Shown here: positions 4,631 to 27,781 of the stretch, one piece after another | Layout: each line of letters starts with the position of its first letter | How positions within the stretch are numbered: position 1 is the first letter of the stretch | Made by a program: the position numbers and the translations under genes | DNA from: Methanomethylovorans sp. PtaU1.Bin093 | Lineage (GTDB): Archaea; Halobacteriota; Methanosarcinia; Methanosarcinales; Methanosarcinaceae | Assembly: GCF_002067275.1 (NCBI RefSeq) | Contig: NZ_MVQX01000059.1 | Span: 1-64,000 of the forward strand | Direction: 5' to 3' | Length of the DNA stretch: 64,000 bases | Notes under the pieces: generated by a model | Databases searched by the model: none | What the model saw: the letters and a program-made list of their open reading frames with translations, nothing else | What the model was told of the DNA's origin: nothing

Positions 4631-5440
4631 CTATCCGACAAAATAGGATGCAACAAGTGTTGAGAGCGTGGTAATTGAAAACAGCATATCCGACATCTTC
4701 AGGTCTTTTTTGCGTATTTGAACATTACCGTTCTGTCCATATCCCCGGCACAGCATACTTATGTATGTTCTTTCTCCCTGTTCATAGGCCATTATAAAAA
4801 TAGAACTTATGGTATATCCTATCTGTTCCAGTATCCACATACGGCGGACCTTTTTATTCCAGACGTTGAACAAACGGCACTTCTGAGCGGTGCGGATACG
4901 TTTGAGCACGCTCCAGAACAGGAACAGATACCTGACCATCATGGTAAGCAGCAATGCTATTTCCTTTGGAATGCCCAGCTGTCTTGCGGCTCCCACGATA
5001 TCGTGCATCTTCGTGGTTGAAGAAAGCAGTATTATGGCACTTACACATACAATGAACTTTGCCAGCAGTGTTATGCCAAAGTCCAGACCTTCGTAGGTCA
5101 CTGTAAGCCCCAGTGGCAGATCAAGGGGATATTCCGTAAAAGAATCAAAGAAAGGCTGTCTCACAAAAGGCTGGATCACGATAATGCCCAGCCCGAAGGG
5201 CAGCACTGCAAGGAAACGGACGATCACATACACAGGATTCAGTTTTGCCAGGGCCATTAGAACAATGAGGTACAATTCCACAAAGGCCAGGCGTGTCAGG
5301 TTCTCGTCGTGTACCCGGGGCAGGCTTACAGTGAATAGTATTATTATGATCACTGCAAGGAGTTTTACACGACCGTCAAGGCGATGCACCGGACTATCCT
5401 TATACGCTTCTTTTTCAATATCTGTAAGCGTTATCTCCAT
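4631..5440 (-). CDS. cbiQ: Cobalt ECF transporter transmembrane subunit CbiQ
   Basis: A 269-residue energy-coupling T-component. It opens with the family signature SPVHRLDGRVKLLAVI (residues 16-31), followed by about five membrane helices. The cytoplasmic coupling helices contain the A-R-x-L-G-I-P type motif (AARQLGIPKEIALLL) and the later EQGERTYISMLCRGYG motif; both grip the CbiO ATPase. It lies downstream of cbiO with a 14-bp gap, so cbiO-cbiQ form an operon. The direction is opposite to cbiMN, an unusual split of the four-gene transporter. Confidence 0.92.
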   Translation of the reverse strand: MEITLTDIEKEAYKDSPVHRLDGRVKLLAVIIIILFTVSLPRVHDENLTRLAFVELYLIVLMALAKLNPVYVIVRFLAVLPFGLGIIVIQPFVRQPFFDSFTEYPLDLPLGLTVTYEGLDFGITLLAKFIVCVSAIILLSSTTKMHDIVGAARQLGIPKEIALLLTMMVRYLFLFWSVLKRIRTAQKCRLFNVWNKKVRRMWILEQIGYTISSIFIMAYEQGERTYISMLCRGYGQNGNVQIRKKDLKMSDMLFSITTLSTLVASYFVG

Positions 5441-20215: not shown

Positions 20216-20295
20216 CCTGCAGAAAACGACTTGATATTTGCCCGATTCCGCAATATTAATATGTTAAGTACTTATTTACAACATATTCCTTTTGT

Positions 20296-20380
20296 GCGGG
20301 GGTTGCCCAGCCAGGTCAAAGGCGCAGGGCTTAGGACCCTGTTTCGTAGGAATTCGTGGGTTCGAATCCCACCCCCCGCA
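20296..20380 (+). tRNA. tRNA-Leu (TAG)
   Basis: An 85-nt class II tRNA with a long variable arm. Acceptor stem GCGGGGG/CCCCCGC with discriminator A. Anticodon stem CAGGG/CCCTG with loop CTTAGGA, anticodon TAG (reads CUA, Leu). The T arm is GTGGGTTCGAATCCCAC. CCA is not encoded. Confidence 0.96.
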
Positions 20381-20536
20381 TGCGAAATTTTCTGTAAGGT
20401 CATTTCAAATTTTTTGCACGCCAGAATCCGGATTAAGCAACACCGTTCTATTGCAAAAACAGTTACTTCCGATTTTTGAACGCTTATGGTTACAATATCT
20501 TAAATTATTATGAAAAAATGGGTTTTTGATCTGAAG

Positions 20537-21331
20537 TTAAATTTCAGTTATTGGTGTAGAATCTTTCAGGTAGTAATCAAAAAGCTCTTTTACCCAGTTG
20601 ACAACACTCTGACCTCTACATAACATAAACTTATTATCAAACTCTCCATTATTTTTTAGCGCACATATTAGAGAATGAACACTATCAAATGTAAAGTATA
20701 AAAAATTCATCTCTTTGTTGTAAACATACATGTTGAAGGATTTGTACTTAATAAATTTTGAAAACTCTTCTTGATATTCTGTTCTTATCAGTTTAAGTAG
20801 TTCTTGAGAAACGATATAGTGGAAATCAACATTATTCTCAAGCATTTCTGTGACTATCGGATCAAAATTAGGGTAGAGCATAGTAGTAACTGTATATACA
20901 GTAGGGGATACTTCATAATTTGGGTTAAGAGATTTGTGTACATTAAATAATTCTGTAAGAGAAGGATTTATTATTTCGCAGTTCTTAAGCTGATCTATTT
21001 TTTTTAAGAGATAGGATGGGATGAAATCAAGATTACGACTTCCCCAGTAATCAATGTCACTGTCGAAAACTTCAGTTTTATATAGTAAAGGACTCATATC
21101 CTCAACAATGAGTTTTCCAATAGTTGTCAACTCATAAGTATCAGCATAGTGGGAAATAAGAGAGTGGTTTTCAAGTACCTTCATCTGAGGAAGTAGTGCT
21201 TGTCTAGTAGTATCCAAGCATTTGAGAAGGTATTCCGTTTCCTTTGCCCCATCCCTCAACAAGAGGAGAACAACCTTTCTCTTCTCTGAAGCAAATATCA
21301 CGTCAAGCAACGTTTTTTTCATTTGCAGCAT
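20537..21331 (-). CDS. FilR1/DUF1724-type winged-helix regulator
   Basis: A 264-residue regulator. The N-terminal winged helix (about 5-80) includes LKCLDTTRQALLPQMKVLENHSLI as recognition helix and turn. The C-terminal methanogen-type FilR1 (DUF1724) domain contains the YELTTIGKLIVEDMSPLL transition. The family is expanded in Methanosarcinales and linked to control of methanogenesis and stress genes. It is transcribed away from the encapsulated-ferritin homologue across a 274-bp shared promoter region, so it may control itself and that gene. Confidence 0.86.
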   Translation of the reverse strand: MLQMKKTLLDVIFASEKRKVVLLLLRDGAKETEYLLKCLDTTRQALLPQMKVLENHSLISHYADTYELTTIGKLIVEDMSPLLYKTEVFDSDIDYWGSRNLDFIPSYLLKKIDQLKNCEIINPSLTELFNVHKSLNPNYEVSPTVYTVTTMLYPNFDPIVTEMLENNVDFHYIVSQELLKLIRTEYQEEFSKFIKYKSFNMYVYNKEMNFLYFTFDSVHSLICALKNNGEFDNKFMLCRGQSVVNWVKELFDYYLKDSTPITEI

Positions 21332-21605
21332 CTCCTAACAAGCAAAATACTGTTCATTGAGCAACACTTTATATTTAGTATAGTGGATGTAAACAAAAAT
21401 ATTTAACCTAAATGAAATGAATCTACTTAATATCTTTGCGTATAAATTAAATTTCTATTACTGAACGTACAGGTTTAAATTTCTTCCCACACCCCAAACC
21501 TCTCCTTTATATGATCATTTAAATTAGAATGCCAATCTTTCTTAGCATTATGTTTCATATAATGTATCTTCAGAGATTCCAGCTTTCTCCCAAAAGGTAT
21601 ATGTT

Positions 21606-21920
21606 ATGAAAACTCATATTCAAATCGGTGATAGTATGATACACGAAGACAGGAATAAGTTATCAGCAAAGACCCAGGATATGACGAGAGCGATCGATTC
21701 ACTAAGGGAAGAGCTGGAAGCAGTCGACTGGTACAATCAGAGAGCAGATGCCTGCACTGACGAGAACCTGAAGAAGATACTGATACACAATGCCAACGAA
21801 GAGAAAGAGCATGCAGCTATGCTCATGGAATGGATAAGGCAGCATGATGAGAACTTTGCCAAGGAGCTGAAAGAGTATCTTTTCAGCGAAGAGGCAGACA
21901 TAGCAAGCCTTGAAGAATAA
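21606..21920 (+). CDS. Encapsulated-ferritin (EncFtn)-family protein without shell gene
   Basis: A 104-residue helical protein that closely follows the EncFtn pattern: EELEAVDWYNQRADACTDE, then HNANEEKEHAAMLMEWIRQHDENF. By spacing the iron ligands would be Glu36, Glu66 and His69, with Trp42 in the conserved DWY. In bacteria EncFtn is a ferroxidase packed inside encapsulin shells through a C-terminal loading peptide. This protein ends DIASLEE with no such peptide, and no encapsulin gene is in the window. AGGT lies 7 bp before the ATG at 21606; an alternative ATG at 21636 follows GGTGAT. Confidence 0.82.
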   Translation: MKTHIQIGDSMIHEDRNKLSAKTQDMTRAIDSLREELEAVDWYNQRADACTDENLKKILIHNANEEKEHAAMLMEWIRQHDENFAKELKEYLFSEEADIASLEE

Positions 21921-24028: not shown

Positions 24029-27000
24029 ATGGTTGAAAGTATATGTTTTAACATCTTCGAAAGATTTAGTGCCCATAGGTGGGCTAAATCCCGTCATGTA
24101 TTGTTAATTGCATTATGGGTAAGTAGTTGCTTATTTGCTCCAAAGACTGCTTTCTCTGAAAAAGATAATACATTAAGAATGAAAAATAGAGACAACACCA
24201 CATTTAAAAAAATATCCGTGTTCTTCCTTGGCCTGTCGTTTTGTTTCCTGTGTTTTTCCATAGTTGGATCAGGTTTGTCCTCAGGTGCGACCGTATATGT
24301 TGATACGGACGGAAGTGGCGACTACAACTGTGACGGAACAAATGATCACGTTGAACTTAATAAAGCACTTGCGTATATTGACAGTATTGGTGGCGGTACT
24401 GTATATCTCAGAGGCCCAAATACATACTGGATAGACAGCACTCTCAAAATCGGTGCAAATACGATCCTTACAGGAGACTCGACCGCTGAAATAAAACTGG
24501 TTGCAAATGCTGGCTGGTCCAGTGAAGTACCTATGATGGCAAACATGGGAACCGATGGTGACATTACGGTCACAGGTTTCATTATTGATGGGAACAGCGA
24601 AAATCAGGGTGTTTCTCTTGGAGCCGGATATTACAATATGATGCGCTTTGAAGGTGGCAATAACATAGAGGTTTCCCACATGCGTCTTGAATGGGGATGT
24701 GGTGACGGGTTACAGGTAAGAAAGGCCAGTAACATTAAATTCACTAACAATGATGTATACAAGCTAGGTCATGATGTTCTATACGCTCTTGGATGCCGTA
24801 ATGTAGAATTTGCTTACAACACCGTTTACACGCGAACAAACAGCGCATGCAGGTTGGCAGATGGTAATACGAATTCTATTATCCATGACAATTTTATAAC
24901 TGGTGAGTCGACAGGACCTGGAATTCAGATCGGCACATCTGCTACTACCAGTCACGTGTTCGACGATATCGAGGTATATAATAACCACCTGTATTCCTTG
25001 AAGGGTTCAGGGATCTGGATAACTGCGAACTATCAGGACAATGTGGTCCATGCCCGCGATGTATACATTCACCACAATATCTTTACAAAAGTTGGACAAT
25101 ATAATACCAACACCGGATACAGCAATGCTGGCATTACCCTTGGTGATTTTGATAATACAATTATCGAGAACAATGTTTTCGATGATGGTGGTCATGCTGC
25201 TATCAAATATTATCTCCGTCCCGACAGACGCCAGCAACAGACCCAGTTTACAACCTATGTAAGAAATAATATCATCATGAACTCAGATGGCGTTTCATCT
25301 GTCACTGGCTCTGGTGTGGGGATATGGAATACCAATCCGACATACTCCAAATTTGTTGTACAGAATAATAATTTTTACAATAATAAGAATGGGGACACGT
25401 ATGGTGGAAGTATAACAATGAGCAATAATCTCAATGGTGATCCACAGTGCGCTGATCCAACCAACTCTAACATTCGATCCCGTGATTACCATCTAAAGAG
25501 CAAAGCAGGTCGTTATTCAAATGGCAAGTGGGTAACTGATGCAGTTTCCAGTCCACTGATAGATGCAGGATATTCAGGATCAGCTTATAGCAGTGAACCT
25601 TCACCCAATGGCGGGAGGATCAATATTGGACGTTATGGTAACACTGGCCAGGCATCCAGGAGTGGTTCAACAGTTCCTAATCAGATCGATGCTGCTCCGG
25701 TTGCTAATGCTGGTGCAGATAAGACAGCGACCGCAGGTTCTTCTGTTAATTTCGATGGAAGTGCTTCTACCGATGACAAAGGTGTAGCTTCTTACTCCTG
25801 GGACTTCGATGCATCGAACGGCATAACATCTGAGGCTACAGGTAAGACAACAACTAAAACATATACAAATGCTGGGACGTACACTGTGACCCTTACTGTT
25901 ACAGATACGGCTGGACAGACAGCCACGGACACGGTGAATGTAGTTGTCAGTGGCACAACAACGCCCACAGGTCCAACTACACCCACAAACCCAACTACAC
26001 CTACAGACCCAGCTACTTCCACGCCAGGTTCGGTTTCATATTCTGCTGCCTATGACAACAGATTGCGCGAATCTTTGCCAACAACGGTACTTCCAAGTTC
26101 CAATTTTATCGACATAGGAAGACTTGGAACAAGTAGTTACAGAGATGTGATGATGTTCGATCTAAGTGGCTACAGCACAACCGATACAATATCTAAGGCG
26201 ACTCTGTCTCTTTACTGGTATTATGAAAGCGATACACGTACTTCTGACACTGTGGTTGAGATCTACAGGCCAGCTGAGTGGGACCCTAAGTACGTCAGCT
26301 GGAACAACCGTGCCTCTGGTACTGTCTGGAGCACAGCAGGCGGAAACTGGTATGATAAGAACGGCGTTGCCCAGGGCAGTACTCCTTACGCATCTCTGAC
26401 ATTCCCTGCTGGCACTGCTCCTGGTAACAAGTACTATGAGTTCGATGTCACTCAGCTTGTGCAGGAATACATAAGCGGGAAGAGCAAGAATACCGGTTTC
26501 TTCATCAAGGCGAAGACAGAAAATGGTAACTACATTGCTTTCTACAGTTCCGATTGGTCTAACTCTGCCCAGAGGCCCAAATTAACTGTGTCCTCAACAG
26601 CAGGTTCAAGCCAGCCGGCAGATAATGTGCAAGATAATGCGCCAGTTGGCAACGCAGGCGATGACCAGACCGCAGCTGCAGGTTCTGCTGTTAGTTTCAA
26701 CGGAGGCGCTTCCTCCGATGACAAAGGCATAGCCTCCTATTCCTGGGACTTTGATGCTTCAAATGGCATCACCTCTGAAGCTAGCGGGGTTACTGCTACG
26801 TACACATACGGAACAGCCGGGAATTACGTTGTCACCCTGACAGTCACTGATACAAATGGTCAGACCTCAACCGACACAATGAACGTGGTTGTAACTGCAG
26901 CAGTTTCTGCTGATGCTGCCCCGATTGCCAACGCAGGCGATGACCAGACCGCAGCTGCAGGTTCTGCTGTTAGCTTCAACGGAGGTGCTTCCTCCGATGA

Positions 27001-27781
27001 CAAAGGTGTAGCTTCTTACTCCTGGGACTTCGATGCATCGAACGGCATAACATCTGAGGCTACAGGTAAGACAACAACTAAAACATATACAACTGCAGGG
27101 ACGTACACTGTGACCCTTACTGTTACAGATACGGCCGGACAGACAGCCACGGACACGGTGACCGTGGTCGTCAGTGGCACAACAACGCCCACAAATCCCA
27201 CTACTTCCAGCTCGGTCTCCCATTCTGTTAGTTATGACAACAGATTGATCGAGTCATACCCAAGTACAGTCTATTCAAGTTTAGCTTATCTTGACATTGG
27301 TAAAAGCTCAACTCGCTGCAGGGATCTCATGATATTCGATCTGAGTGGCTACAGCACAAAGGACACAATATCTAAGGCAACTCTGTCCCTCTATTGGTAT
27401 TATCCATCGGACAGGACGAGAGCTTCTGATACTGTTGTGGAGGTATACAGGCCGGTTGAGTGGGACCCTAAGTACGTCAGCTGGAACAACCGTGCCTCTG
27501 GTACTTCCTGGGGCACAGCAGGAGGTAACTGGTATGATAAGAACGGTGTTGCTCAGGGCAGTACCCCGTACGCATCTCTTACATTCCCTGCCAGCAAGCT
27601 GGCTGATAACAAATACTATGAATTGGATGTTACTGAACTCGTTCAGGAATACATAAGCGGGAAGAGTAAGAACACTGGTTTCTTCCTTAAGGCAAAGACA
27701 GAGAGTGGTGATTACATTTCGTTCTACAGCTCTGACTCGTCAACTGCTGCCAGGAGGCCCACGCTAACCATAACTAAGTAA
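24029..27781 (+). CDS. Disaggregatase-like secreted surface protein (beta-helix, PKD and DNRLRE domains)
   Basis: A 1250-residue exported protein. Domains: two hydrophobic N-terminal segments (about 24-44 and 60-85), a right-handed beta-helix (about 88-545), PKD domain (554-642), Thr/Pro linker, DNRLRE carbohydrate-binding domain (670-857), PKD (871-955), PKD (964-1050) and a second DNRLRE domain (1063-1250). The layout matches the Methanosarcina disaggregatase family, which degrades the methanochondroitin matrix and disperses cell clumps. A strong GAGAGGTG site supports the start at 24029, although the Met at 24179 alone would give a normal signal peptide. PKD1 and PKD3, and the two DNRLRE units, are nearly identical over long DNA stretches. 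Confidence 0.88.
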   Translation: MVESICFNIFERFSAHRWAKSRHVLLIALWVSSCLFAPKTAFSEKDNTLRMKNRDNTTFKKISVFFLGLSFCFLCFSIVGSGLSSGATVYVDTDGSGDYNCDGTNDHVELNKALAYIDSIGGGTVYLRGPNTYWIDSTLKIGANTILTGDSTAEIKLVANAGWSSEVPMMANMGTDGDITVTGFIIDGNSENQGVSLGAGYYNMMRFEGGNNIEVSHMRLEWGCGDGLQVRKASNIKFTNNDVYKLGHDVLYALGCRNVEFAYNTVYTRTNSACRLADGNTNSIIHDNFITGESTGPGIQIGTSATTSHVFDDIEVYNNHLYSLKGSGIWITANYQDNVVHARDVYIHHNIFTKVGQYNTNTGYSNAGITLGDFDNTIIENNVFDDGGHAAIKYYLRPDRRQQQTQFTTYVRNNIIMNSDGVSSVTGSGVGIWNTNPTYSKFVVQNNNFYNNKNGDTYGGSITMSNNLNGDPQCADPTNSNIRSRDYHLKSKAGRYSNGKWVTDAVSSPLIDAGYSGSAYSSEPSPNGGRINIGRYGNTGQASRSGSTVPNQIDAAPVANAGADKTATAGSSVNFDGSASTDDKGVASYSWDFDASNGITSEATGKTTTKTYTNAGTYTVTLTVTDTAGQTATDTVNVVVSGTTTPTGPTTPTNPTTPTDPATSTPGSVSYSAAYDNRLRESLPTTVLPSSNFIDIGRLGTSSYRDVMMFDLSGYSTTDTISKATLSLYWYYESDTRTSDTVVEIYRPAEWDPKYVSWNNRASGTVWSTAGGNWYDKNGVAQGSTPYASLTFPAGTAPGNKYYEFDVTQLVQEYISGKSKNTGFFIKAKTENGNYIAFYSSDWSNSAQRPKLTVSSTAGSSQPADNVQDNAPVGNAGDDQTAAAGSAVSFNGGASSDDKGIASYSWDFDASNGITSEASGVTATYTYGTAGNYVVTLTVTDTNGQTSTDTMNVVVTAAVSADAAPIANAGDDQTAAAGSAVSFNGGASSDDKGVASYSWDFDASNGITSEATGKTTTKTYTTAGTYTVTLTVTDTAGQTATDTVTVVVSGTTTPTNPTTSSSVSHSVSYDNRLIESYPSTVYSSLAYLDIGKSSTRCRDLMIFDLSGYSTKDTISKATLSLYWYYPSDRTRASDTVVEVYRPVEWDPKYVSWNNRASGTSWGTAGGNWYDKNGVAQGSTPYASLTFPASKLADNKYYELDVTELVQEYISGKSKNTGFFLKAKTESGDYISFYSSDSSTAARRPTLTITK
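25690..27778 (+). repeat. Duplicated PKD-DNRLRE module inside the disaggregatase-like gene
   Basis: The DNA of the first PKD-linker-DNRLRE block (25690-26600) recurs at 26920-27778. Parts of the PKD coding sequence match base for base over more than 80 positions, for example around 25781-25865 and 27006-27090. A third PKD copy at 26640-26895 is more diverged. This points to recent duplication or gene conversion. Confidence 0.85.

What the first reader, a model, noticed from the sequence alone, without database searches (positions are those of the whole stretch)
21606..21920. EncFtn-family ferritin without an encapsulin gene or loading peptide
All three predicted iron ligands and the DWY motif are kept, but the C-terminus lacks a cargo peptide and no shell gene is near. 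A free EncFtn ring may handle iron differently. A FilR1 regulator diverges from it.
Basis: partly seen in the sequence, partly recalled or inferred. Interest (0 to 1): 0.55.

Follow-up and report, generated by a model that had tools for sequence, protein, structure and literature searches.

The report
Shell-free encapsulin-type ferritin in methanogens
A methane-producing archaeon carries a small iron-oxidising protein of a type usually packed inside a protein shell, but neither it nor its relatives seem to have the shell, so it probably works on its own; the type is already known from bacteria.

Summary
The reading is essentially right, but the class is already described. The ORF is an EncFtn-like protein (PF22277, 131.9 bits). 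It keeps Glu/Glu/His, DWY and the HxxxEExEH motif, and its nearest solved relative is Nitrosomonas europaea NE0167 (3k6c). A 2024 review calls that type "s-FLP" and leaves open whether it is encapsulated (PMC11202242).

Corrections: the start is most likely 21636 (94 aa), not 21606. The FilR1-like neighbour sits beside the gene in only 1 of 21 methanogen loci.

Extension: s-FLP occurs in 23 of 237 genomes of the class, in 3 of 39 genera, among them Methanolobus. The own genome has no PF04454 shell gene. In the 23 carriers every PF04454 hit (11 genomes) is a proviral capsid. Of 80 named carriers, 79 have no targeting tail and no convincing shell gene. The one with a tail has a 259-bit shell gene on the same contig. 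Methanogen and CPR/DPANN copies form one clade (100/98).

Most likely function: a free ferroxidase ring that consumes Fe(II) with O2 or peroxide without storing mineral (inferred). New member of a known kind.

The parts
   Evidence: PF22277 E 7.1e-39; 3k6c E 9.6e-30; AlphaFold model pLDDT 89 and PDB matches; start by conserved upstream elements; dN well below dS against 10 relatives
21590..21603 (+). BRE/TATA-like promoter element ccaaaaggtatatg
   Evidence: similar position relative to the start in many relatives, by eye in the listing; promoter function inferred
21627..21632 (+). GGTGAT ribosome-binding site before ATG 21636
   Evidence: GTGAT in 13 of 23 methanogen rows, counted by eye
20537..21331 (-). 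divergent regulator with FilR1_middle domain (PF08350) and a weak HVO_A0261_N-type winged helix; probably unrelated to the s-FLP
   Evidence: adjacency to the s-FLP in 1 of 21 methanogen loci

Best explanation
The gene encodes a shell-free EncFtn (s-FLP). Shown: a two-helix ferritin-like protein with an intact EncFtn di-iron site, no targeting tail, no shell gene in the held genome, and an isolated location with its own promoter-like element. Inferred: two monomers meet to form the ferroxidase centre (E26, E56 and H59 from each), and five dimers form a decameric ring as in NE0167 and R. rubrum EncFtn. Fe(II) enters past E25/E28 and the outer H51/E55 site and is oxidised with O2 or H2O2. With no shell to hold mineral, the ring acts as a soluble ferroxidase, iron buffer or O2/peroxide scavenger, not as a bulk store. 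The gene was exchanged horizontally among methylotrophic methanogens and CPR/DPANN cells.
For: Family and fold. Ferroxidase pattern kept in 99 of 99 rows. No PF04454 in the own genome. In the class, 23 of 237 genomes carry s-FLP: 12 of the 23 have no PF04454 hit, and 11 have only hits whose loci carry a virus head module. Named carriers: 79 of 80 are tail-less, and none of the 79 has a convincing shell (74 no hit, 5 proviral-type hits of 43-62 bits). The one tailed carrier, L106, has a 258.7-bit shell on the same contig. Neighbour genes vary and no partner is conserved in all loci. EncFtns without a shell keep ferroxidase activity but do not store mineral (PMC11202242, section read). Purifying selection.
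Against: No oligomer, metal or activity was tested; the model is a monomer. The organism is presumably a strict anaerobe, so O2 as oxidant is episodic. The own genome is 86% complete. A different kind of shell is not fully excluded: the family-2 search (PF19307) found nothing but had no positive control, and families 3 and 4 were not searched. Completeness of the 80 named genomes was not reported, and many are MAGs. Horizontal exchange rests on a 97-column tree and unchecked MAG binning.
Confidence: 0.7

Rival explanations
1. It is encapsulated after all: the short C-terminus (DIASLEE) is an unrecognised loading peptide for a shell that is missing from this assembly or has diverged.
For: The genome is 86% complete. 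The C-terminal D-I-A-S-L-E is conserved in methanogens. The review proposes a putative s-FLP peptide and says encapsulation is sterically possible.
Against: G001, 99% complete, carries the s-FLP at 97% identity and has only a 28-bit proviral capsid. Carriers G063, G065, G066, G067, G070 and G073, in 1-2 contigs at 99-100% completeness, have no PF04454 hit. The I..LE stretch aligns with the end of the core in H. ochraceum EncFtn (PILELE), so it is core rather than an added tail.
Confidence: 0.1
2. It is an iron-storage replacement for classical ferritin in these methanogens.
For: The own genome and its near-complete sister G001 carry s-FLP and have no PF00210 ferritin; three genus members without s-FLP have one.
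Against: Across 111 family genomes there is no association: no strong ferritin in 5 of 23 carriers and 16 of 88 non-carriers, Fisher p 0.77. G004 has both. Known EncFtns do not store mineral without a shell.
Confidence: 0.1
3. It has another di-iron role (peroxide reduction, electron transfer, metal chaperone) rather than iron oxidation as such.
For: An anaerobic host; ferritin-like di-iron proteins such as rubrerythrins are peroxidases (recalled); a weak Rubrerythrin match below cut-off.
Against: The EncFtn ligand set and entry-site glutamates are kept, and the closest relatives are EncFtns.
Confidence: 0.2

Closest known systems
s-FLP (short ferritin-like protein) class, type NE0167 of Nitrosomonas europaea, PDB 3k6c
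   Same: Length (95 vs 94 aa), 65% sequence identity and 67% in the fold alignment, no targeting tail, EncFtn core
   Different: Archaeal host; W kept in DWY where NE0167 has L; tail DIASLEE where many proteobacterial copies end KPIAHK
TP-type encapsulated ferritin (R. rubrum Rru_A0973, H. ochraceum)
   Same: Fold, ligands E32/E62/H65 equivalents, entry-site glutamates, HxxxEExEH in R. rubrum
   Different: No linker, no targeting peptide, no shell gene
Fusion-FLP of archaea (Pyrococcus furiosus, 5n5e)
   Same: Archaeal, EncFtn-like fold (E 2e-6)
   Different: Not fused to a shell; the bacterial-type H is kept where archaeal fusion-FLPs are reported to have D

Membership tests
EncFtn-like family (PF22277) | Profile score above curated cut-off | tested here: met
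   131.9 bits against 27
EncFtn-like family (PF22277) | Ferroxidase ligands E32, E62, H65 (R. rubrum numbering) | tested here: met
EncFtn-like family (PF22277) | Decameric ring, di-iron centre at the dimer interface | not testable with these tools
   only a monomer model
Encapsulin-associated ferritin-like protein (TIGR04535) | Score above NCBIfam cut-off | tested here: not met
   116.1 bits against 125
TP-type encapsulated ferritin | C-terminal targeting peptide | tested here: not met
   no TP-like pattern in the tail; only L106 of 99 rows has one (the R. rubrum and H. ochraceum rows were core fragments without their tails)
TP-type encapsulated ferritin | Shell gene nearby or in the genome | tested here: not met
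   PF04454 absent from the held genome
s-FLP class | Short EncFtn without disordered C-terminus or targeting peptide | tested here: met
   94 aa; definition from PMC11202242 passages
FilR1 regulator (neighbour) | Receiver domain plus ArsR-related domain | tested here: not met
   264 aa with FilR1_middle only; no receiver domain found by Pfam; FilR1 described with REC in PMC3991700

The most novel reading that the evidence does not exclude
EncFtn rings evolved, or reverted to, a stable shell-free life as soluble ferroxidases across Proteobacteria, CPR/DPANN cells and methylotrophic methanogens. The methanogen/CPR/DPANN clade passed horizontally between methanogens and small-genomed cells as an oxygen- or peroxide-protection gene.
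Probability: 0.4. Interest if true: 0.5.

Novelty: new member of a known kind. Interest (0 to 1): 0.32.

Why it matters
The 2024 review leaves open whether s-FLPs are encapsulated. Genome co-occurrence says no for family-1 shells in 79 of 79 tail-less named carriers, so the question can now be tested with one purified protein. If free rings oxidise iron without a store, that shows what the EncFtn ring does by itself, and possibly how it worked with no compartment.

Tried and rejected
FilR1 as regulator of the s-FLP: the FilR1-like cluster adjoins the s-FLP in 1 of 21 methanogen loci; rejected as evidence. A conserved operon partner: none; in Methanolobus a membrane protein (cluster C4) lies just upstream in 8 of 21 loci, but not in the window's genus. 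PF04454 hits in the family as real shells: rejected. The 12 loci L036-L047, L008, and L171-L173 (taken as G053, G059 and G048 by identical contig coordinates) all carry the same head module, and the true shell locus L167 carries none of it. Four of the 19 hit rows were not examined (G071:C6, G062:C79, G074, G030); none of those genomes is among the 23 carriers. G001's 28-bit hit appears but not, so the first look is not exhaustive. Ferritin replacement: no association. Family-2 shell (PF19307): nothing found, but no control genome rang, so inconclusive. Single origin of the methanogen copies within their clade: unresolved with 97 columns, and the bootstrap had not settled. A Fisher test of tail against shell (p 0.0125) rests on one tailed row and is not used. 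A first dN/dS attempt printed nothing because of my pattern; redone. Literature: listings; no paper on an s-FLP in methanogens was found there. Giessen and Silver 2017 (reference 57 of the review) was not read.

Full report
What is there. The window ORF at 21606-21920 encodes a protein with a strong match to Pfam EncFtn-like (PF22277, 131.9 bits, cut-off 27). It also matches NCBIfam TIGR04535 just under its cut-off (116.1 of 125). Its best solved relatives are N. europaea NE0167 (3k6c, E 9.6e-30), H. ochraceum EncFtn and R. rubrum EncFtn. An AlphaFold model made from the window protein and 24 genome-collection relatives has mean pLDDT 89 and four helices, and its best PDB matches are these same proteins. 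Aligned to R. rubrum EncFtn, whose mutated ligands are E32, E62 and H65 (passages of PMC5012862), the window residues in 94-aa numbering are E26, E56 and H59. The entry-site pair is E25/E28 and the outer pair H51/E55. The ligand pattern is found in 99 of 99 rows and HNxxEExEH in all 99; EExEAxDWY fails in 2 of 99, L080 and NE0167.

The start. In the methanogen relatives the protein begins M-x-H-E. A ccaaaa-tata element lies about 40 bases upstream of that ATG in many of them, and GTGAT just before it in 13 of 23 rows (by eye). In the window these lie at 21590-21603 and 21627-21632. The ATG at 21606 would lie between promoter and ribosome site, so 21636 is the likely start (94 aa).

No shell. 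PF04454 finds nothing in the held genome (86% complete). In its genus, 1 of 6 genomes has a 28-bit hit beside a phage cement protein. In the family, 16 of 111 genomes have hits of 33-77 bits. Of the 23 s-FLP carriers in the class (23 of 237 genomes, 3 of 39 genera), 12 have no hit. The other 11 have hits whose loci all carry the same virus head module (scaffold-like, cement-like or connector-like genes).

Named carriers. Read to the stop, 79 were taken as tail-less. For L073 the extension script failed, but the same record's unnamed copy (G044, locus L023) was read and ends DIASLEE. L106 (Acidimicrobiia) ends in a GSLGLGG-type tail. PF04454 gave 0 hits in 49 of 50 genomes, the exception being L106's genome with 258.7 bits on a contig shared with L106. 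In the other 30 it gave hits in 5, all Methanolobus, at 43-62 bits and proviral. Completeness was not told for these genomes.

Kinship. In a tree of 99 rows, 22 methanogen and 6 CPR/DPANN-labelled rows form one clade (100/98), apart from the proteobacterial copies. Inner order is unresolved, the bootstrap had not settled, and MAG contigs may be misbinned, so direction of transfer is not claimed. The window's genus is unnamed; Methanomethylovorans is my guess from recall of genome size.

Surroundings. Among 21 methanogen loci (G068 and G069 were not fetched) the FilR1-like gene adjoins the s-FLP only in the window, and neighbours vary. FilR1 proper carries a receiver domain (PMC3991700 passages); this 264-aa protein matches only FilR1_middle and, below cut-off, a winged-helix domain. 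dN is far below dS against ten relatives (dS saturated in several).

How it works. Inference from the family: a decameric ring with di-iron ferroxidase centres. The review states that EncFtns oxidise Fe(II) without a shell but do not store mineral (section 6 of the review read). I therefore favour a soluble ferroxidase or O2/peroxide scavenger. Classical ferritin is absent from the own genome and G001, but over 111 genomes s-FLP and ferritin are not associated (5 of 23 against 16 of 88 without a strong hit, counted by eye with best E above 1e-12 taken as none; p 0.77).

Known or new. The review (PMC11202242; passages and section 6 read) names s-FLPs, says they were first called non-encapsulated, says they are mainly bacterial, and leaves encapsulation open. 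The archaeal occurrence and the co-occurrence counts are additions here, not found in the searches, which cover open papers only.

Noticed in passing
L184:4586-4858 and 4871-5161 (- strand; own genome contig C55): Two head-to-tail 90- and 96-aa two-helix ferritin-like proteins that match EncFtn-like and Rubrerythrin about equally; weak PF22277 hits of this kind, often in pairs, occur widely in the family.
   Followed up: partly
L183, G057:C97:16810-17082 (- strand): A second s-FLP copy in G057, 81.7% identical over 279 bp without gaps to the intact copy, carries several in-frame stops (TAA inside the matched stretch); the contig's other genes read normally, so it is probably a decaying duplicate.
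   Followed up: partly
L008, L036-L047, L171-L173: Proviral head modules in Methanosarcinaceae whose capsid proteins score over the Linocin_M18 cut-off (28-77 bits), a source of false encapsulin calls.
   Followed up: yes
L070, L074, L075, L077, L078, L080: Contigs labelled CPR or DPANN carry s-FLPs of the methanogen clade, up to 83% identical to the window protein; binning was not checked.
   Followed up: partly
window 20295-20381: tRNA-Leu (tag) gene, which explains the spurious short ORFs there.
   Followed up: no
window 24029-27781: A 1250-aa ORF with repeated PKD-like stretches and DNRLRE-like repeats, probably a surface protein (seen; labels recalled).
   Followed up: no
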